From: JACRDV01 sp024860865 [NCBI: Methanobacteriota archaeon] | GTDB lineage: Archaea > JACRDV01 | Length of the DNA: 16,712 nucleotides | NCBI GenBank assembly: GCA_024860865.1 | Contig: JACRDV010000050.1 | Coordinates: 1-16,712 of the forward strand | Direction of reading: 5' to 3' | Shown here: positions 949 to 16,391 of the stretch, in pieces | Position numbering within the stretch: the first letter of the stretch is position 1 | Layout: the number at the start of each line of letters is the position of its first letter | Made by a program: the position numbers and the translations under genes | The notes under the pieces: model-generated | Told to the model about the DNA's origin: nothing | Seen by the model: the letters and a program-made list of their open reading frames with translations, nothing else | The model's database searches: none

Positions 949-958
949 TTTATATTTA
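949..958 (+). promoter_or_regulatory. Archaeal TATA box for the eS26-like/transglutaminase operon
   Basis: TTTATATTTA lies about 55 nt ahead of the ATG at 1010. Transcription starting about 25 nt downstream (near 978) would leave a leader of about 30 nt that carries the GGTGAT Shine-Dalgarno at 1001-1006. It would start downstream of the other in-frame ATG at 968, which therefore could not be used from this promoter. Confidence 0.5.
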
Positions 959-1009
959 ATACTAAGGATGAATGCTACTTATTGTTGTTATACACATAAT
1001 GGTGATATA

Positions 1010-2869
1010 ATGCCAACCAGAGCAGCCTATAAACGTGGATATAAAGCCGGGAAATCGAAGGGAAAGGATACTACAGTCTGGTGCGAAGGTTGTGGAAGAA
1101 AGTTTCCCAGACATAAAGCCTTTTTAGGTCGCAAATCTTTCCGTATCTTCGATCCAGCCTTGAGCAGGATTATTGATAGAAGCCAGGTTGAAGTAGAGCA
1201 ATATAAGGTGTACTATTGCCCTAAATGCGCGAGGTATTTGGGAATTGTTGAGCCAAGCGGCAGAAGAGCTGAGATACGGGCAATTAAACCCATACTTGCA
1301 AAGTCTAGATTAACCGCTGGAGACATAGTTACATTTTATGTTCCTGAAATTCTATACCGAGGCGGATCCTACACTATTGGCGTTAGCGTCCGCAATAAAA
1401 GTGCGAGTCACGGCAGATTTGTAGTTTTACCGGGCACGATTATACATGGACTTGGTATATCTCCAAATGAAAAGAGGATATTTCTGAAAGCTGGTGGCTC
1501 TGATGCAGTGGCATTTGCGCTCCAAGTTAGGCCAGAAGCGCTAGAAAATGAAAGAGTGCCGATAAGTTTTAATCTAAAGAGTGAAGATGGGCGAATTTTT
1601 GACTCAAAGATAAAATACATTTCAATTAAAACTCCTGAAGTCATGCCAATTGAAGCAGTTAAGGAGATTACAATACTCAAGCAAATAGATAAAGCTGATA
1701 TTGAACTCAACAAAGTTGCGAATGTTACTTTGACTGCAGTAAATCCAGAAAATATTGAGTTAGTTAGCGTGGCAATTGCTGATCATATTCCTGAGATTTT
1801 TAAATTAGTTAATGGAAAAAACGTTTGGACTGGTAAGCTTAAGCCAGGCAAAAGCAAGCAAATTACATATAGAATTAAGGCAACAGCAGCCGGCGCATTT
1901 GAACTCCCACCAGCAGTTTTAACATATGAAGATGAAAAAGGAAACAAGAAAGAACTTAGATCAAAACCGATTAAAATCCAAGTTTCGCAACCACAGCCAA
2001 AAATAATTTTACCTACAATTTATGCGATGTATAATCCAGACGGGAAATTAACTTTAGTCAACCTTCAAAATATTGGGAGAGATTTAGCTAAAGAGGTTAA
2101 TGCTAAAATAATTTTAACACCACTTTCTGGAGAATTAATTGAAGCTGAAGGCAGAGCCCGTGCGCGCGACATTAGACCAGAAAGTTCACTTGAAATAAAA
2201 TTTGAACTTCCAGAACTAAAAGACTTATTTTATCCTTTTGAGTTAAAAGTTAATTACCAAAGTGAAGATGGAGTTCAATATTCAGAAGCATTTAATGGCT
2301 ATATGCTTTATGATATTTCAGCTAAGGTCTCTGCATATACTAAGTTTTTGCAAGGAGATAATGCTCAGCTCAAACCCTATGTAATGCTTAAAACTTCTGC
2401 TATTAAAGAAACAAATCAAATTGTTGAATCTTTTTATAAAGTCGTAACTGAAGGGACGGTGTATACCGAGACAACTGAAGGTATAGAACCCCAAGGATTA
2501 TTGATGCGAATCATATCACCACTAAAAAAGAGACCAGTTGCTTCTTGCTTTGATAGAAGTTTTCTGTTAGCGAGTTTATTAAATGCAAAAGGTCAGTCAG
2601 CTCGTGTAATTATGGGTTACATTTTGAATGGAAGATGGACCAAGCACGCTTGGGTTGAAGTGCACTATGGGAATAGATGGATACCGTTAGAAACAACTTT
2701 GAGCGCTAAAGAACTGCATAGACAGCTAACTAAGTCTGTATATGAAGATGGAAAGTATCTTCCAGTTATAGCCTTGCAAAGGGATGCATCGACTCAATGG
2801 AATCTAAAAACTAGATTTCACGAGAGATTTGAGGAATCAATAAAGAGACTTAAAAGTGAAATAAAATGA
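1010..2869 (+). CDS. eS26-like zinc-domain protein fused to Ig-like repeats and a transglutaminase-like domain
   Basis: A 619-aa protein. Residues 1-80 resemble ribosomal protein eS26: a basic Lys/Arg/Gly tail, CEGCGRKFPRHKAF (C25, C28), a DPALSR segment, then YYCPKCARYLGI (C70, C73). The motif order and spacing match archaeal S26e. Residues about 105-480 look like beta-sandwich modules; one has the BatD/DUF11-like pattern of IPEIFKLVNGKNVW followed by a Y-x-I-K-A-T-A-A-G-A-F run. The C-terminal domain is transglutaminase/cysteine-protease-like: Cys513 (ASCFDRSFLLASLL), His546 (KHAWVEVHYG) and Glu561 (WIPLETT), where Asp is usual. I see no signal peptide or membrane segment. The start is set at 1010 by GGTGAT at 1001-1006 and TATA spacing; an ATG at 968 would add 14 residues. 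Its stop overlaps the CBS gene start (ATGA), so the two are co-translated. Function is unknown; an eS26 role for the N-terminus is inferred from motifs only. Confidence 0.8.
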   Translation: MPTRAAYKRGYKAGKSKGKDTTVWCEGCGRKFPRHKAFLGRKSFRIFDPALSRIIDRSQVEVEQYKVYYCPKCARYLGIVEPSGRRAEIRAIKPILAKSRLTAGDIVTFYVPEILYRGGSYTIGVSVRNKSASHGRFVVLPGTIIHGLGISPNEKRIFLKAGGSDAVAFALQVRPEALENERVPISFNLKSEDGRIFDSKIKYISIKTPEVMPIEAVKEITILKQIDKADIELNKVANVTLTAVNPENIELVSVAIADHIPEIFKLVNGKNVWTGKLKPGKSKQITYRIKATAAGAFELPPAVLTYEDEKGNKKELRSKPIKIQVSQPQPKIILPTIYAMYNPDGKLTLVNLQNIGRDLAKEVNAKIILTPLSGELIEAEGRARARDIRPESSLEIKFELPELKDLFYPFELKVNYQSEDGVQYSEAFNGYMLYDISAKVSAYTKFLQGDNAQLKPYVMLKTSAIKETNQIVESFYKVVTEGTVYTETTEGIEPQGLLMRIISPLKKRPVASCFDRSFLLASLLNAKGQSARVIMGYILNGRWTKHAWVEVHYGNRWIPLETTLSAKELHRQLTKSVYEDGKYLPVIALQRDASTQWNLKTRFHERFEESIKRLKSEIK

Positions 2870-3408
2870 TTCCAGTTCGTGAAGTAATGACAAGACGCGT
2901 AGTTACGGTTAGGCTAGGAACAACTATTTCTGATGCTGCAAAGATTATGAGCGAACGCAGGGTTGGAGGAGTTATAGTTTTAGAAGATAAAATTCCAGTT
3001 GGTATTGTAACTGAGCGCGATATTTTGCTTCATATAGTAGCTCCTGGAAAGAATCCAAATAAAATTCGAGTTAAAGAGATAATGTCTTCTCCGGTTATTA
3101 CAATTGACAAAGAAACTGACATTAACGAAGCAGCAAAACTAATGAAAAAAGCAGAAATTCGAAGACTACCTGTTGTAGAGCGAGGAAAGCTTGTTGGCAT
3201 TGTAACTTCAGCTGACATAATGGCAGTGACTCCAGCTCTAAATGAAATTTTGCTCGAAATGATTAAAACAAAGGCTGATATCGAACCAAAATCAGAAGAA
3301 ATAAAAGGTCCAGGAATTTGCGAAAATTGCGGGAGCTATGTTGAATCATTAGATGAAGTTGATGGCAAGTGGGTTTGCGAAGATTGTAGAGAGGAATTGG
3401 TAGGATAG
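2866..3408 (+). CDS. CBS-domain pair protein with C-terminal zinc ribbon
   Basis: A 180-aa soluble protein. Two CBS motifs form a Bateman module: residues about 1-57 (IPVREVMTRRVVTV ... PVGIVTERDIL) and about 68-122 (VKEIMSSPVITI ... LVGIVTSADIM). Such modules usually bind adenine nucleotides or other adenosyl ligands and regulate a partner. After an acidic/lysine linker, the C-terminus has C152-x2-C155 and C171-x2-C174, which should hold one zinc. CBS-zinc-ribbon proteins are common in archaea, mostly without assigned targets. The ATG overlaps the TGA of the upstream fusion gene (ATGA), so it is translationally coupled; the natural inference is that it senses nucleotides for, or acts with, that protein. 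No catalytic domain is present. Confidence 0.9.
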   Translation: MIPVREVMTRRVVTVRLGTTISDAAKIMSERRVGGVIVLEDKIPVGIVTERDILLHIVAPGKNPNKIRVKEIMSSPVITIDKETDINEAAKLMKKAEIRRLPVVERGKLVGIVTSADIMAVTPALNEILLEMIKTKADIEPKSEEIKGPGICENCGSYVESLDEVDGKWVCEDCREELVG

Positions 3409-4804: not shown

Positions 4805-4999
4805 TTGAGAGTAGCTGGAATTTGTGCTATTTGTGGAAAGGTAGTGCAATCTTTTAATACTTGTATGCTTTGTGGTCGGAATGTTTGTAACGAATGTTTT
4901 AATTATATCACTGGAACTTGTAAGAGGTGTGTTCCCGTTCACCAACAAAGAAAAGAAGAAATAAAAAACCAGGATGAGCATCCATACGCTAATTTTTAA
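4805..4999 (+). CDS. Small 8-cysteine zinc-binding protein
   Basis: A 64-aa protein with four CxxC pairs: C7/C10, C20/C23, C28/C31 and C39/C42, enough for two zinc ions in a cross-brace or double treble-clef arrangement, followed by a short charged tail. The start is TTG with GGTGAG at 4795-4800, four bases upstream. AT-rich promoter-like sequence (CGATAAATAAG, about 4763-4773) lies ahead. The next gene, Cdc48, begins about 35 nt downstream on the same strand, so they are probably co-transcribed; by context it could be an adaptor or cofactor for the unfoldase, but that is inference. No DNA-binding or catalytic motif is recognisable. Similar short zinc proteins are widespread and uncharacterised in archaea. 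Confidence 0.8.
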
Positions 5000-9110: not shown

Positions 9111-9440
9111 TTAACGTAAGATCATTTTAAAGAAATACCCGCGTGGAGTATAATGATAGTGATATTGGCCTAAGAGCTTCCGTCTAAAAATTTTAAAATC
9201 TTCTATGTGGAGTTCAAAATGAGGAAAAAGATGATGCTTGAAGGATTTGCCGGCCAGCAGAATGCCAGCAACTATTAGAGCAAATCCCATGATCCACCCA
9301 AAAATCAGCACGAATGGAATGAGACCAAACAATCCTAGAGAAACTAAAAATGAGGAAGTTGGGATTTCCCAACTCGGCACTCCTGGCGATATTATCGCCC
9401 CAGCTGATATAAGTATACCGCCCAACTTGATATTTTTCAT
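9111..9440 (-). CDS. Small membrane protein, two TM helices
   Basis: A 109-aa protein of unrecognised family. Two hydrophobic segments (about residues 5-23 and 32-63, the second long and possibly two helices) are followed by a His/Lys/Arg-rich cytoplasmic-type tail (KHHLFPHFELHIEDF, QYHYHYTPRGYF). ATG at 9440 is chosen with GTGGAG just upstream acting as SD; the same GTG at 9449 could itself be the start and would add three residues. It lies about 60 nt downstream of ftsZ on the same strand, but a T-rich terminator-like stretch separates them, so co-transcription is uncertain. A link to division is only a guess from position. Confidence 0.65.
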   Translation of the reverse strand: MKNIKLGGILISAGAIISPGVPSWEIPTSSFLVSLGLFGLIPFVLIFGWIMGFALIVAGILLAGKSFKHHLFPHFELHIEDFKIFRRKLLGQYHYHYTPRGYFFKMILR

Positions 9441-9469
9441 AGTCTCCACTACTTTTGAATTGAAATTTT

Positions 9470-9499
9470 AAATAAAATAAAAAATAAAAAAGAAAAAAA
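9470..9499 (-). terminator. T-rich terminator downstream of ftsZ
   Basis: On the minus strand the sequence just past the ftsZ stop is a run of T blocks broken by single A or C bases, typical of archaeal oligo-T termination. Confidence 0.5.
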
Positions 9500-10606
9500 T
9501 TAGATTGTTAGGAAATCTATCCCTGAACTAACTTGCCTACCGCTTGGACTCCATCCTTCGTGGGCAGATGGACTATGACCAAGAAGTTGCTTAGAATGAA
9601 CGCCTGTCATGATAACCATTATGCGAATCGTGCCTTCAAGGTCTTCTTGTATTCTTGCTCCCCAGATGACATTGGCATTTGGATCAAGCTCTTGAGTCAC
9701 TAATTCACCAATTTTGTTTGCTTCACCAAGGGTTAGATCAGGTCCACCGCTTATGTGAAGAAGTGCACCAACAGCTCCTTGGTAGTCAACATCTAGCAAT
9801 GGACAGTTCATAGCGTCTTTAACCACAGCCTCAACCCGGTTTTGAGCGTTAGATTCTCCAATTCCTATGCTCGAGACTCCACCGCCGCTCATTATTGCTT
9901 TCACATCGGCGTAGTCAAGATTTATTAGACTGGGAATGGTCACTGTTTCAGTTATACCTTTTACCGCTTGAGAAATAATTTCGTCAGCTACACTGAATGC
10001 CTGATCTAGTGGCAAATGGGGTACAAATTGGACTAATCTATTGTTATCAATTACAACTACAGTGTCTGCTGCTTTTCTCAGTTTTTCGATGCCCTCATCC
10101 GCTTTCTTTAGTCTAGCTCGCTCAATCGCGAAGGGATATGTTACCATTCCAATAACAATGCTGCCCATTTGTTTTGCAATCTCTGCAACAACTGGAGCTG
10201 ATCCTGTTCCTGTACCACCTCCCATACCGGCGGTTATAAAGACCATGTCAGCATCTTTCAGTAGCTCTTCAAAAGCTGGTCGTGCAAGTTCAGCCGCCTT
10301 TGCTCCAACCTCTGGATATCCACCAGCACCGAGTCCGCGAGTTAAGTTTTTGCCTATAAGGACTTTTTTATCAGCTTTAACAACATCAAGATGAACTTTA
10401 TCTGTATTGACTGCAATTAGATCTGCACCTTGGACACCTATCTTTGCTAATCGGTTGATTGTATTATTGCCACCTCCACCGCATCCGATGACAACAATCC
10501 TTGGAGTTCCGAAAAGTTCTGGCTCTTGGTCTCCAACACTTACGTCAGCTCTCTTCAATGCATCCTCATGTGCATGAGCCAATGCTTCTTCAATTATTGA
10601 TTTCAT
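9500..10606 (-). CDS. ftsZ: Cell division GTPase FtsZ
   Basis: A 368-aa tubulin-family GTPase that polymerises into the division ring. Visible elements: a 34-residue N-terminal extension beginning [17 protein letters not shown], the first glycine loop (GCGGGGNN, 41-48), the tubulin signature GGGTGTG at 129-135, and the T7 loop NLDYADV (N229, D231, D234) that completes the GTPase site of the neighbouring subunit. Core length is normal; the C-terminal tail ([15 protein letters not shown]) lacks an obvious bacterial FtsA/ZipA-binding peptide. The N-terminal extension favours the archaeal FtsZ1 group, but subtype is uncertain. A very strong SD (GAGGAGGT) sits before ATG 10606. It is 17 nt downstream of an RHH regulator and most likely shares its transcript. 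Confidence 0.96.
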
Positions 10607-10623: not shown

Positions 10624-10800
10624 TTAGGAAAACTCAGCAGCCTGAACATCTGTGACTGCAACTTCCGGTTTATGCCTAGTTAACAGCTCGCGAATTGCTT
10701 GACGAATGGCTTCACTCTTTGATGTGTATTCACCATCTTGAACTAACAAGTCGATTTGCTCAACTTGTCTTCTTGGAAGACGGATCGTGATTCGTTCCAT
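10624..10800 (-). CDS. Ribbon-helix-helix (CopG-like) regulator, CdrS-like
   Basis: A 58-aa RHH DNA-binding protein: the beta-strand [19 protein letters not shown] followed by two helices ([17 protein letters not shown]). Such proteins bind operators as dimers through the paired strands. The start ATG at 10800 has a GAGGTGA SD. It is directly upstream of ftsZ (17 nt), the same gene order as cdrS-ftsZ2 in haloarchaea, where CdrS is a division regulator; homology by position and fold is suggestive, not proven. It is short, with a 15-residue acidic C-terminal tail. The frame continues open further upstream, but that part has no SD and crosses the promoter. Confidence 0.9.
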
Positions 10801-10818
10801 TATTCGGTCACCTCTCCC

Positions 10819-10862
10819 TGTGTGAATGTGTGAATGAAATAGTGAACGAGCATTATATAAGC
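10819..10862 (-). promoter_or_regulatory. Promoter and repeat-type operator of the RHH-ftsZ operon
   Basis: Read on the minus strand, a TATA box (TTATATAATG, about 10853-10862) lies about 55 nt ahead of the RHH ATG, giving a leader of roughly 28 nt. Around the expected transcription start the plus strand reads GTGTGAAT twice in tandem (about 10820-10835), then a related GTGAACG. Direct repeats next to the start are typical of RHH operators, so autoregulation is plausible. Confidence 0.45.
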
Positions 10863-11072
10863 GTTTTGCGTTGTTTTTAAAAGAGCAAGCTTTAAATATA
10901 GTTAACAAATTTCTAATTTTGAAGTTAGAACTTAAATTTGCAAATCTTTTTAAGCATAATATTGAGCAAAGTTGCATATGACAGTAGTCAGACAGAAAAC
11001 TACTTACGAATGCTGTTAACAAGTAAATATGTAAATAAAACTGAATTTGTTGATAGTGAAGTTGTGAGTCGA

Positions 11073-12534: not shown

Positions 12535-13080
12535 TTATCTAGTTTTGCCCACATTGACCTCAGTCCGGTTAGTATATCGCCATTCATATGAGGCTGTTCC
12601 TTTGCCTTGCTTTGTCATGTTTGAGATGATTATCAGCTCTTTTGTACCCTTGAAGCTGAGAGTTAGGTTTACTCCAGTGTGACACATTATGCAGGCTATG
12701 GGTTCAGGTTTTGTAGGGACGCTCCCGTGTCCACTTGCATTTATTATAGCCGGGTAAGTTGGATGGCATCCTGAGCGAGAACCACAGAAACCATAGCTTC
12801 GGTTGACATAGTGAGCACCTGCCCCATATTCATGGCAATCCTTACAATTAGAATCTGTCTGCGTTTGTTTATGTGGGCCTGCATTGGTAGTTGAACTAGC
12901 AGCCTCACTGGCAATGTTTTCGTGACATTGGACACAACCGGGACTTTGGTACCAAGTGTGCGAACCCAGGAATCTTGCTGTCACTGAAGGCAGTGCCAAA
13001 ACCATACCAACCGCTAGTGATAGTCCTAACAAAATCACTAATGCAGTAACCCAGATAGCTTGTTCTTTTAATATGCTCAT
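12535..13080 (-). CDS. Small membrane-anchored multiheme cytochrome c-like protein
   Basis: A 181-aa protein with an N-terminal membrane helix (residues about 9-30) that should place the rest outside the cytoplasm. Heme-attachment motifs: CVQCH (C49-H53), CKDCH (C79-H83), CIMCH (C130-H134), plus an unusual CGSRSGCH (C99-H106, CX5CH), so three typical hemes and one possible atypical one. Role would be extracytoplasmic electron transfer; no partner oxidoreductase or cytochrome maturation gene is in the window. The TAA stop (12535-12537) directly abuts the IS remnant at 12534, so the original C-terminus may have been cut by that insertion. The SD is weak. It lies between two same-orientation ends of one IS family, suggesting acquired or rearranged DNA. 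Confidence 0.8.
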   Translation of the reverse strand: MSILKEQAIWVTALVILLGLSLAVGMVLALPSVTARFLGSHTWYQSPGCVQCHENIASEAASSTTNAGPHKQTQTDSNCKDCHEYGAGAHYVNRSYGFCGSRSGCHPTYPAIINASGHGSVPTKPEPIACIMCHTGVNLTLSFKGTKELIIISNMTKQGKGTASYEWRYTNRTEVNVGKTR

Positions 13081-13848: not shown

Positions 13849-13881
13849 TTATAAATCAATATAGTGTAATATTTACACTAT
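13849..13881 (+). promoter_or_regulatory. Transposase promoter with palindrome over the start codon
   Basis: TTATAAAT (13849-13856) is centred about 28 nt before the transposase ATG, implying a leaderless mRNA. ATAGTGTAA-TAT-TTACACTAT (13861-13881) is a perfect 9-bp-arm palindrome covering the expected start site and running into the ATG. Its half-site TTACACTA also occurs in the inner part of the terminal repeats, so transposase may bind here and repress itself. Confidence 0.6.
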
Positions 13882-15391
13882 GCCTTTTGTAAGGAAAATC
13901 AAAACAAAAAGTGGAACATACCTTGTAGAAGTAGAAAACACTTGGCAAAATGGAAAAGTAATTCAAAAGCACATAAGGATGGTCGGAAAGGTTACGGATA
14001 AAGGAATTGTTTACAACGAGCTGGAAAGGTCTGAGGTAAAAAAAGTTCTCTCGCATGCAAATGTTCTTGCACTTCACAAAATTGCAAGCGATATCGGAAT
14101 TGAAGATATTTTAGGAGAAAATTCAAAACAAATTTTAGCTTTAGCATATGCCCACTGCATAGAGCCAAGAAGCATAAATTCAATGAAAATTCTTTTGAGA
14201 AAAGCAAACATTGAAGAAATAATTGGAGAAGAAATCACACCAAAAAAACTTAGGGATGCTGTTCAATCAATTGGTGAAAAAGATCTATTCAAAATTGAGA
14301 TGAAGCTTTTTGAAAGGATTCAAAGTTTTTATTCAGAAATTAATTCAATTGTATACGATGTTACAAGAATTTACTTTTACGGAACTAAGTGCAAGCTAGC
14401 AAAGCCTGGCTATAATCCAAGGCACGCCTTTATTCCTCAAATAAACATAAGCCTCGCTGTAACAATGGAGCATTCATTTCCAATTTTTCACGATGTTTTT
14501 CCTGGCAATGTATACGACTCAAAGACTTTGCTTAGCTTTTTGGCAAAGCTGAACATGCTTGGGATTAGAAACAAGACGCTAATAATAGACAGAGGATCAT
14601 ACTCTGAAGAAAACGTTGGAAATGCCTTGGAAAGCGGATTTGAAGTAATTGCTGGAGTTCCCTTAAGAGGAGAGATGAAAGAAATTGCGAGAGAATTTAA
14701 GGAAAAAATTGCAGATGCAAAAAACAGGCTCAGCCTTAAAACAGTTTCAATCTATGCAAAAGAAATAAGGATTAAAAATAGGAAATTTGTAGTTTGTTTA
14801 AATGAAGAAGATAGAACATCAAGGAGGGAAGCAAGGAGGCTTGAAATAGATCAGGCGATTGAAAGGCTGAGCTCTGGCCTTCCAATAAAAGAGGGAATAA
14901 AAAAGTATTTGATAAAAACAAAAGAAGGATTTGAAATAAACTACGATAGATTAAGGGAAGCAGAAGAATTCGATGGGATATATCTCATTCTTTCCACAAA
15001 AGAAATTTCAAAAGGAGAAATTGTAAAAGCATATTTTGAAAAGGATAAAATAGAAAAGGCTTTTCGCTGCCTGAAAAGCGTGGTGGAAGTTGCTCCTGTA
15101 AGGCACAGGATTTGCAGCAATGTTTATGCTCACATTTTCATATGCTATCTTGCTTACCTTCTCCTCTCTCTTTTTGAGTATAAGCTTGAAAAAGCAGGCC
15201 TTTCTATAAATGGAAGAAAACTGACTGCAAAGAGAGCACTTGAGGAGCTTGAGACAGTTTATAAGGTAGAGATAGAAGATCCAATTACTAAAAGATCATT
15301 TTCAAAAATTATAACCTTAAATAAGTTGCAGGAAAAAATTTTAAGGGCTCTAAAAATTAAATTGCATAGTGTAAAAACAGGGCAAACTTAG
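13880..15391 (+). CDS. IS1634-like DDE transposase
   Basis: A 503-aa transposase. The N-terminus (MPFVRKIKTKSGTYLVEVEN) is the beta-stranded start typical of this group. The DDE catalytic triad is readable: D160 (SIVYDVT), D237 (LIIDRGSYSEEN) and E392 (DKIEKAFRCLKS), with the characteristic HDVFPGNVYDSKTL after the first Asp. A large insertion lies between the second Asp and the Glu, as in IS4-superfamily enzymes. Length is normal and no frameshift is seen. ATG at 13880 overlaps the palindrome, with no SD, consistent with leaderless translation. The last residues (HSVKTGQT) are encoded by the right inverted repeat. Confidence 0.92.
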   Translation: MPFVRKIKTKSGTYLVEVENTWQNGKVIQKHIRMVGKVTDKGIVYNELERSEVKKVLSHANVLALHKIASDIGIEDILGENSKQILALAYAHCIEPRSINSMKILLRKANIEEIIGEEITPKKLRDAVQSIGEKDLFKIEMKLFERIQSFYSEINSIVYDVTRIYFYGTKCKLAKPGYNPRHAFIPQINISLAVTMEHSFPIFHDVFPGNVYDSKTLLSFLAKLNMLGIRNKTLIIDRGSYSEENVGNALESGFEVIAGVPLRGEMKEIAREFKEKIADAKNRLSLKTVSIYAKEIRIKNRKFVVCLNEEDRTSRREARRLEIDQAIERLSSGLPIKEGIKKYLIKTKEGFEINYDRLREAEEFDGIYLILSTKEISKGEIVKAYFEKDKIEKAFRCLKSVVEVAPVRHRICSNVYAHIFICYLAYLLLSLFEYKLEKAGLSINGRKLTAKRALEELETVYKVEIEDPITKRSFSKIITLNKLQEKILRALKIKLHSVKTGQT

Positions 15392-15407: not shown

Positions 15408-15480
15408 GGGCCCGTGGTCTAGGGGTTATGACACCTCGTTGACACCGAGGAGGTCGCCGGTTCGAATCCGGCAGGGCCCA
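15408..15480 (+). tRNA. tRNA-Val(GAC)
   Basis: 73-nt cloverleaf: acceptor GGGCCCG, D arm, anticodon stem CCTCG/CGAGG with loop TTGACAC and anticodon GAC (15441-15443), variable AGGTC, T arm GCCGG-TTCGAAT-CCGGC, then AGGGCCC and discriminator A. CCA is not encoded. Acceptor pairs 1-6 are perfect but the last pair is G7-A66 (15414 with 15473), a mismatch where archaeal tRNA-Val normally pairs. An IS ends 15 bp upstream, displacing the native promoter; the right IS end offers TGTAAAAAC (15370-15378) at about -33 as a poor substitute. An integrase follows directly, so the 3' half is probably an attachment site. Confidence 0.92.
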
Positions 15481-15542
15481 CTTTTGCCGTTATTAAGGCA
15501 ACCTCGGACACCCAAAATTATAACCATTATAACTATGACACC

Positions 15543-16391
15543 TTGTTTTGCGAAGAGAGGCTTAAAGAGTTTGTTAAGTGGCTTGAGGTCAACGAAAACA
15601 AAGCTCCGATTACCGTTTATAGGTACAAGAACCTCATAATGAAGATAATTAAAAGCAATATTCCAATCCACGAATACATAGAGAATTTCAAAAGAACGCA
15701 CCATCCAAATGGCTATAAGAACTTGTTGAAGGCATTACGAAATTATGCCAAGTTTCTAAAAAACAAAGAATTTGAAGAATTTGTTAAAGGGTTTAGGTTC
15801 CCGAGCGTTCCTTTCCAATACGAGATTTTGCCTTCAAAGGAAGAAATTATCAAATTTTACAACGAGATTAGAGATTCTCAACTAAAAGCAATTTTCCTAA
15901 TGTTGATTTCGAGCGGATTGAGGATAAACGAGCTTCTTGGCATTAGGGCAAAAGACATCGTTTTCAAAAGGAGAATAATTAACGCTTCTTTAATTCACAA
16001 TGGCACGACCAAGTTTTCCTATATCGCATTTTTCAACGAAGAAGCCGAAAAATCCTTGAAAGAATACTTGAACGGCATAAAATTGGATGCCGATTCTAGG
16101 ATTTTCACAGTGAAAGCAAGAAATGTTCAAGAGCTTTTCAATGAAATCTCAAAAAGATTAGGGATTAAAATAACTCCAAAGACCTTGAGAAAGATTTTCA
16201 CCAACGAGTTAGGGAGAAAGAGGATACCCGATAGGTTCATAGATGCTTTTTGTGGAAGAATACCAAATTCGACCATTGCAAAACATTATAGCGATTTTAG
16301 CCCGGAAAACTTGAAACAAATCTACGATGGAGCCGATTTAAAGGTTCTTAGTCGTACGATAGTCGAACACAACGGCGTTGTTTACGGATAA
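15543..16391 (+). CDS. int: Archaeal SSV-like tyrosine recombinase (integrase)
   Basis: A 282-aa integrase (counted from TTG 15543). An N-terminal core-binding domain (residues 1-85) is followed by the catalytic domain with R127 (SSGLRINELL), K157 (NGTTKFSYI), K213-x-x-R216 (ITPKTLRKIF, Lys in place of the usual His) and nucleophile Y249 (STIAKHYSDFSPENLKQIYD). This K-x-x-R and H-Y-x-D-F-S pattern is typical of archaeal virus/plasmid integrases (archaeal phage-integrase family). All catalytic residues are present. TTG 15543 is the first usable start but has no SD; the frame stays open upstream through the tRNA-Val 3' half to a TGA at 15429, and the NYNHYNYD stretch there parallels the remnant at 12117. 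The true N-terminus may therefore be encoded across the attachment site. Confidence 0.9.
   Translation: MFCEERLKEFVKWLEVNENKAPITVYRYKNLIMKIIKSNIPIHEYIENFKRTHHPNGYKNLLKALRNYAKFLKNKEFEEFVKGFRFPSVPFQYEILPSKEEIIKFYNEIRDSQLKAIFLMLISSGLRINELLGIRAKDIVFKRRIINASLIHNGTTKFSYIAFFNEEAEKSLKEYLNGIKLDADSRIFTVKARNVQELFNEISKRLGIKITPKTLRKIFTNELGRKRIPDRFIDAFCGRIPNSTIAKHYSDFSPENLKQIYDGADLKVLSRTIVEHNGVVYG

What the first reader, a model, noticed from the sequence alone, without database searches (positions are those of the whole stretch)
1010..2869. Ribosomal eS26-like zinc domain fused to a transglutaminase-like protein
Residues 1-80 carry the eS26 layout (basic tail, CxxCG..P..KA, DPAL.R, YYCxxCA..LGI) and run without a stop into beta-sandwich modules and a Cys-His-Glu transglutaminase-like domain. 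I know of no described protein with this architecture. It could be a ribosome- or RNA-bound cysteine protease or crosslinker, or the zinc domain could have been reused. The ATGA-coupled CBS/zinc protein would then be a nucleotide-sensing partner.
Basis: partly seen in the sequence, partly recalled or inferred. Interest (0 to 1): 0.68.

Follow-up and report, generated by a model that had tools for sequence, protein, structure and literature searches.

The report
Ribosomal protein eS26 fused to transglutaminase
In one deep-branching archaeal genome the only detectable gene for the ribosomal protein eS26 continues without a stop into a soluble enzyme-like transglutaminase module, which suggests an enzyme anchored to the ribosome, though only one genome shows it and nothing has been tested in the laboratory.

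Summary
Window 1010-2869 (+) is one open frame of 619 residues. Residues 1-92 are a divergent but complete eS26: NCBIfam S26e E 2.1e-11 (below its cut-off), a family profile finds eS26 chains in the PDB at 3.6e-10, and all four zinc cysteines are kept. It is the only eS26 found in its genome. The rest holds a BatD-like module, probably two more beta-sandwich modules, and a transglutaminase core with Cys513, His546 and Glu561. No start codon lies in frame between residues 77 and 167. Of 23 archaeal transglutaminase relatives examined, 22 carry an N-terminal hydrophobic segment; the fusion has none, so it is probably cytoplasmic. Of 394 archaeal genomes, 162 match the eS26 profile, one place each; in the listed rows only this one is fused. 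The genome is alone in its phylum in the held set, so the fusion rests on one draft assembly. Best reading: a 30S-tethered transglutaminase-fold hydrolase or crosslinker at the mRNA exit site; ribosome binding and catalysis are inferred. By-product: eS26 occurs in Archaeoglobaceae and Methanopyri, against published statements that euryarchaeotes lack it.

The parts
950..959 (+). TATA-like element upstream of the fusion gene
   Evidence: Read directly from the sequence; consensus recalled, not tested
1001..1006 (+). Shine-Dalgarno-like GGTGAT before the ATG at 1010
   Evidence: Read directly from the sequence; motif recalled
1010..2869 (+). Fusion gene, 619 aa: eS26 domain, beta-sandwich modules, transglutaminase core
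1010..1285 (+). eS26 domain (residues 1-92), zinc cysteines at 1082, 1091, 1217, 1226
   Evidence: NCBIfam S26e E 2.1e-11, profile against PDB eS26 3.6e-10, fold search, invariant residues kept
1337..1624 (+). Probable first immunoglobulin-like module
   Evidence: Weak FixG_C match E 0.038, under its cut-off, and alignments of L137, L142 and L144 that start at residues 97-122; otherwise inference
1685..1984 (+). BatD/DUF11-like immunoglobulin-type module
   Evidence: Pfam BatD E 5.8e-7, over cut-off
2000..2299 (+). Probable third beta-sandwich module
   Evidence: Inference from length and partial alignments that end at residues 348-402; no family match
2420..2692 (+). Transglutaminase core with Cys513 (2546-2548), His546 (2645-2647), Glu561 (2690-2692)
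   Evidence: Pfam Transglut_core 2.7e-8 and 1.8e-9 in the genome search; triad alignment; fold search
2866..3408 (+). Overlapping next ORF: two CBS domains and a cysteine-rich, zinc ribbon-like C-terminal end
   Evidence: Pfam CBS 6.4e-33, two stretches; DUF7573 2.4e-4 under its cut-off at the C-terminal end; ATGA overlap

Best explanation
The gene encodes the organism's own (and apparently only) eS26, made as the N-terminal domain of a larger cytoplasmic protein whose C-terminal part is a row of immunoglobulin-like spacers and a transglutaminase-fold Cys-His-Glu hydrolase. The eS26 domain is expected to dock on the 30S subunit at the mRNA exit channel around the 3' end of 16S rRNA, as eS26 does in Saccharolobus and eukaryotes; the spacers would hold the enzyme in solution beside the mRNA exit site. 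There it would cleave or crosslink proteins that gather at that site (mRNA-bound proteins, initiation factors, neighbouring ribosomes). Shown by computation: eS26 homology, unbroken frame, intact triad, no membrane or signal segment, a single eS26 in the assembly. Inferred: that the fusion is real in the organism, ribosome binding, a free C-terminal side, cytoplasmic location, catalysis, and substrate.
For: eS26 homology by three profile comparisons. Fold: all 50 Foldseek rows shown are ribosome or initiation-complex entries, probability 0.99-1.00, best E 1.3e-3; several of these chains are named eS26 or S26; best VIA Z 6.3, rmsd 5.2, 75 aligned. The eleven residues invariant in 28 stand-alone relatives are all kept (G18, C25, C28, G29, P33, K36, D48, C70, P71, C73, A74). 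One eS26 place per genome: 162 of 394 genomes match at E up to 0.001, each once, and in this genome the place is the fusion. No in-frame ATG, GTG or TTG between residues 77 and 167, so no start for a separate enzyme gene at the domain junction. Triad: Cys in 22 of 22 and His in 22 of 22 aligned relatives; the acid is Asp in 20 and Glu in 2. The fusion has no hydrophobic segment (highest 19-residue mean 1.29), while 22 of 23 transglutaminase relatives reach 1.6 or more in their first 150 residues. [quoted passage not shown] Weak support for a free C-terminus: in eukaryotic chains the modelled part is often shorter than the full sequence (for example 100 of 118 in 5xyi_a, 99 of 117 in 9bh5_Aa).
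Against: Single draft genome (160 contigs, 92% complete) with no relative in its phylum in the held set, so conservation of the fusion could not be tested. No experimental evidence of ribosome binding or activity. Both curated S26e cut-offs are missed. The eS26 model is weak (pLDDT 66.2, pTM 0.45): no Foldseek match reached E 0.001, and the tool warns that Z under 8 may mean only a common arrangement. The enzyme model is modest too (pLDDT 65.6, pTM 0.65). In the two archaeal eS26 chains compared only 2-5 residues are unmodelled (9fs6_b 93 of 95, 9e71_BX 95 of 100), so a free C-terminus is not shown for archaea. A large protein made at ribosomal-protein levels would be costly. The transglutaminase relatives look extracytoplasmic.
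Confidence: 0.42

Rival explanations
1. The eS26 domain has been reused off the ribosome as a zinc and RNA-binding module that brings the enzyme to some RNA or to other targets; the true eS26 gene is absent or lies in the missing part of the assembly.
For: The assembly is about 92% complete; many archaea show no eS26 (232 of 394 without a match at E up to 0.001), so it can be dispensable; the window domain sits on a long branch (0.94 changes per column).
Against: Every residue that is invariant in 28 stand-alone relatives is kept, as expected of a working eS26; only one eS26-like place in the genome.
Confidence: 0.22
2. The fusion is a precursor: the transglutaminase-fold protease, or another protease, cuts it after translation and releases free eS26, in the way that ubiquitin is cut from its ribosomal-protein fusions in eukaryotes (recalled).
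For: A transglutaminase-fold core with an intact triad in the same chain; closest solved structures include LapG (best VIA Z 9.5, 113 aligned, rmsd 3.2) and a putative cysteine protease from Cytophaga (Z 8.9, 118 aligned, rmsd 3.1).
Against: No cleavage motif was looked for; many transglutaminase-fold enzymes are not self-cleaving (recalled).
Confidence: 0.12
3. The joined frame is an assembly artefact, or a recent accident in one strain, with no functional meaning.
For: One genome, draft assembly, no other genome seen with the fusion; the eS26 part has higher G+C (45%) than the rest (33-41%); transglutaminase relatives normally have a hydrophobic segment where eS26 sits here.
Against: The join keeps frame and lies between two complete domains, about 1 kb or more inside the contig; there is no start codon left over for the second gene between residues 77 and 167, although GTG and TTG codons at residues 67 and 77 lie inside the eS26 part; the gene overlaps the next one by ATGA like a normal operon.
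Confidence: 0.15
4. The transglutaminase core is no longer an enzyme and the C-terminal part is a binding scaffold that recruits partners to the 30S subunit.
For: The third triad residue is Glu instead of the usual Asp (2 of 22 relatives also have Glu); binding-type modules precede the core.
Against: Cys and His are intact and the nearby motif is well kept; a Cys-His-Glu triad is named in the title of an N-acetyltransferase structure of this fold (4dmo).
Confidence: 0.09

Closest known systems
Ribosomal protein eS26 (Pfam PF01283, NCBIfam PRK09335)
   Same: Basic N-terminal tail, CxxCG and CPxCA zinc cysteines, D-P region, fold by model, one place per genome
   Different: Stand-alone eS26 frames seen here are mostly 80-125 residues; here it is the first 92 of 619 residues, divergent, and under both curated cut-offs
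Archaeal transglutaminase-like proteins (Pfam PF01841)
   Same: Cys-His-acid core
   Different: 22 of 23 relatives examined have an N-terminal hydrophobic segment; the fusion has eS26 in that place and no such segment
BatD/DUF11-domain proteins, including two in the same genome (C101, C18)
   Same: Same module at 26-30% identity
   Different: 14 of 15 such relatives examined have a hydrophobic segment of 1.6 or more near one end; the C101 protein does, the C18 protein falls just short (1.41 and 1.56). Neither has eS26 in the frames read
LapG and other transglutaminase-fold cysteine proteases
   Same: Best structural matches of the core (LapG Z 9.5, 113 aligned, rmsd 3.2)
   Different: Not linked to ribosomes (recalled); sequence identity 12% for LapG, 17% for the Cytophaga protein
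Ubiquitin-eS31 and ubiquitin-eL40 fusions of eukaryotes (recalled)
   Same: A ribosomal zinc protein made as one chain with another domain
   Different: Partner is ubiquitin, N-terminal and cut off; here an enzyme-like module, C-terminal

Membership tests
Ribosomal protein eS26 | Score over the curated family cut-off | tested here: not met
   Pfam 17.8-22.2 of 27 bits, NCBIfam 39.8-44.5 of 118 bits; but significant E-values (to 1.4e-11), and G007, G050 and G092, whose stand-alone proteins are among its closest relatives, also miss the Pfam cut-off
Ribosomal protein eS26 | Sequence homology to eS26 by profile | tested here: met
   PDB profile search, best E 3.6e-10, all 60 rows shown (of 74) bear an S26 name; profile-profile probability 98.8
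Ribosomal protein eS26 | Four zinc cysteines and conserved core residues | tested here: met
Ribosomal protein eS26 | eS26 fold | tested here: met
   All 50 Foldseek rows shown are ribosome or initiation-complex entries, probability 0.99-1.00, but best E only 1.3e-3 and model of low confidence; VIA Z 6.3 at rmsd 5.2 over 75 residues
Ribosomal protein eS26 | Binds the small subunit at the mRNA exit channel | not testable with these tools
   No experiment possible
Transglutaminase-like superfamily (PF01841) | Score over cut-off and Cys-His-acid triad | tested here: met
   34.5 bits against 23; Cys513, His546, Glu561
Transglutaminase-like superfamily (PF01841) | Catalytic activity | not testable with these tools
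   No assay
Exported archaeal transglutaminase proteins | Signal peptide or membrane segment | tested here: not met
   Highest 19-residue Kyte-Doolittle mean 1.29; 22 of 23 relatives reach 1.6 or more in the first 150 residues
BatD-type module proteins | BatD domain over cut-off | tested here: met
   30.5 bits against 24.1

The most novel reading that the evidence does not exclude
A deep archaeal lineage carries a transglutaminase-fold protease or crosslinker permanently built into the 30S subunit at the mRNA exit site through its only eS26, a ribosome-resident enzyme of a kind not described before.
Probability: 0.28. Interest if true: 0.82.

Novelty: new variant of a known kind. Interest (0 to 1): 0.55.

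Why it matters
An enzyme-like domain fused to a ribosomal protein at the mRNA exit channel would be a direct handle on what happens to mRNA-bound proteins as they enter translation. The side result matters independently: two papers state that eS26 is absent from euryarchaeotes or confined to TACK and Asgard archaea (PMC7531240, passages; PMC11698992, abstract and passages), whereas one clear eS26 place per genome is found in Archaeoglobaceae and in Methanopyri. That bears on when the eukaryote-like mRNA exit site arose. Yutin et al. 2012 (PMC3353972, passages and the section on archaeal r-proteins) do not list S26e among the five r-proteins inferred missing from the archaeal ancestor, so part of this may have been seen already; their figure on distribution is not held.

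Tried and rejected
Whole-protein scans of the genome collection (90 stretches) and of viral contigs (9 stretches) found no relative of the fusion; their patterns came from six short peptides, so distant relatives could be missed. The 13-row profile could not be scanned for lack of a conserved stretch; a closer set gave 21 loci, of which I set aside L134 (a 25-residue match inside a long frame that does not look like eS26). Neighbourhood: among 15 other genomes with eS26, clusters at BLAST E 1e-6 show no CBS, Cdc48 or transglutaminase neighbour in common with the window; shared are an FtsZ and a small-regulator ORF in G050 and a KaiC-like ORF in G013 and G035, most of them kilobases from eS26. 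Full-length structure prediction was not run, because MAFFT spread the domain fragments over wrong parts of the chain; I predicted the enzyme part and the eS26 part apart. eS30 was not found in the genome at E up to 0.001, and eS25 gave only a partial match below cut-off. Long frames over eS26 hits in G035 (383) and G089 (784) hold stops, and the eS26 ORFs there end after 88 and 101 residues. In one search two of the 23 matches are weak (G432, G683, the latter in a frame of 549 residues, E 6.9e-4 over 47 positions) and were left out of the count of 21. In the phylum of G046, 378 of 398 genomes have eS26 over cut-off and no listed row has a frame longer than 257 residues; that listing was cut, so it covers only the best-scoring rows. 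The listing was cut near its end too; next to 642 for the window its longest listed frame is 226, through upstream reading. Literature: terms eS26 with transglutaminase gave two papers and ribosomal protein, gene fusion, archaea, transglutaminase five, none on this subject by title; I saw listings only, and the library holds open-licence papers only. For eS26 outside TACK and Asgard I searched. From papers I saw: abstract and passages of PMC11698992, passages of PMC7531240 and PMC10380927 (the last not used), passages and one section of PMC3353972. The names Ferroglobus placidus (G092) and Methanopyrus kandleri (G031), used in my notes, are recalled from genome sizes and come from no call.

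Full report
Check of the observation. The frame 968-2869 (+) is open over 633 codons. The ATG at 1010 is the better start: it is where the stand-alone relatives seem to begin, GGTGAT lies at 1001-1006 and a TATA-like stretch at 950-959 (motifs recalled). From there the protein has 619 residues. A stop-free run of 540 codons would arise by chance with a probability of about 3e-18.

The N-terminal domain is eS26. Pfam Ribosomal_S26e alone is weak and under its cut-off. Searching 101 archaeal genomes, its own included, with the whole protein brought in small ORFs at 31-51% identity to its first hundred residues. The 35 loci read out have stop-to-stop frames of 81-226 residues; the longest run upstream of the presumed start, and none runs on past the eS26 end into another domain (by eye). 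A profile of the window domain and 12 of these finds solved eS26 chains at E 3.6e-10, and all 60 rows shown, of 74, bear an S26 name. NCBIfam S26e matches 13 of 13 members, the window's at 1.4e-11, without reaching its cut-off. The profile aligns with nine other archaeal eS26 rows at 98.8% probability. The eleven residues invariant in 28 relatives, among them the four zinc cysteines, are kept. The predicted model is of low confidence (pLDDT 66.2, pTM 0.45). Its 50 Foldseek rows shown are all ribosome or initiation-complex entries at probability 0.99-1.00, but the best E is only 1.3e-3; a second look gives Z up to 6.3 over 75 residues at rmsd 5.2, which by itself would not be decisive.

It is the only eS26 found in its genome. 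In 394 archaeal genomes 162 match the profile, each once. In a tree of 38 rows, seven eS26 rows that pass the Pfam cut-off form one side of a branch (support 100/97), and the window lies on a long branch with Archaeoglobaceae and Methanopyri rows in an open, weakly supported fork (90/92). This suggests that the divergent form is the eS26 of these lineages.

The rest of the chain. BatD (5.8e-7) and Transglut_core (2.7e-8) score over their cut-offs. Two further beta-sandwich modules are inferred from length and partial alignments. The core has Cys513, His546 and Glu561; in 22 aligned relatives Cys and His are invariant and the acid is Asp in 20 and Glu in 2. The model of this part (pLDDT 65.6, pTM 0.65) matches transglutaminase-fold proteins: Streptococcus TglA and a Cytophaga putative cysteine protease by Foldseek (E 1.2e-4 and 2.0e-4), LapG and the same Cytophaga protein by VIA-align (Z 9.5 and 8.9, 113 and 118 aligned, rmsd 3.2 and 3.1). 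The genome has three transglutaminase-core places, this one included.

Is it one protein? No ATG, GTG or TTG lies in frame between residues 77 and 167, that is from the end of eS26 to the middle of the first beta-sandwich module. A GTG and a TTG at residues 67 and 77 lie inside the eS26 part and cannot be excluded as starts by sequence alone. Of 23 transglutaminase relatives, 22 have a hydrophobic segment of 1.6 or more (19-residue mean) in their first 150 residues, including both others of this genome; the fusion's highest value anywhere is 1.29. Of 15 relatives of the BatD-like module, 14 have such a segment near one end. So a module that is usually exported seems here to have lost its signal and gained eS26. 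The weak point is that the genome is alone in its phylum in the held set and is a draft of 160 contigs. No other fusion was seen in 101 and 394 archaeal genomes (the last listing was cut), in 392 genomes of the phylum of G092 (23 matches, 21 of them strong, with frames up to 176 residues), among the listed rows of 398 genomes of the phylum of G046, in 20 of 21 named loci, L134 being set aside as a chance match, or in viral contigs.

How it may work. [quoted passage not shown] If the fusion binds the same way, its enzyme would hang beside the mRNA exit site. Whether the C-terminal end of eS26 is free for this is open: in several eukaryotic chains some 15-20 residues are not modelled, in two archaeal chains only 2-5. 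What it would act on is unknown; mRNA-bound proteins, initiation factors or neighbouring ribosomes are guesses. A self-releasing precursor, a reused RNA-binding domain, an inactive scaffold and an assembly artefact remain possible; the evidence separates them only in part.

What is new. I found no description of such a protein (listings only). The parts are known, the combination was not found in print, hence a new variant of a known kind. A by-product may matter as much: eS26 is said to be absent from euryarchaeotes (PMC7531240; PMC11698992), but 21 genomes of one family carry a clear match, and two of its members, G007 and G050, have contigs of the same length as records titled Archaeoglobaceae. 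Of the 20 accepted named loci, 17 are titled Archaeoglobales, Archaeoglobaceae, Archaeoglobus, Geoglobus or Ferroglobus, one Methanopyri and two Euryarchaeota. The 2012 survey by Yutin et al. (PMC3353972) may already imply it.

Noticed in passing
L114-L133 (named loci), G092, G007, G050 and others: A clear stand-alone eS26 in Archaeoglobaceae (21 strong matches among 392 genomes of that phylum) and in Methanopyri, against published statements that euryarchaeotes lack it.
   Followed up: partly
G004, G013, G047, G077, G089, G098 (loci L100, L101, L103, L105, L106, L108): A 563-682 residue ORF of one cluster lies near or beside the stand-alone eS26 gene in six genomes; by eye it resembles a secretion or pilus ATPase, not tested.
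   Followed up: no
9500-10606 and 10624-11022 (-); L095 (G050) 9212-10527: FtsZ gene with a ribbon-helix-helix regulator gene beside it; ORFs of the same two clusters also lie about 3 kb from eS26 in G050.
   Followed up: no
15408-15481 and 15543-16391: tRNA-Val gene next to a tyrosine integrase (Phage_integrase 1.2e-15), as in an integrated element.
   Followed up: no
13880-15391: DDE transposase (1.9e-12) of 503 aa beside the integrase and tRNA.
   Followed up: no
12535-13080 (-): Small protein with several CxxCH motifs and weak multihaem cytochrome matches, under their cut-offs.
   Followed up: no
225-665, 2866-3408 and 4805-4999: Three proteins around the fusion gene with zinc-ribbon or RING-like cysteine patterns, family matches for these parts weak and under cut-off.
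   Followed up: no
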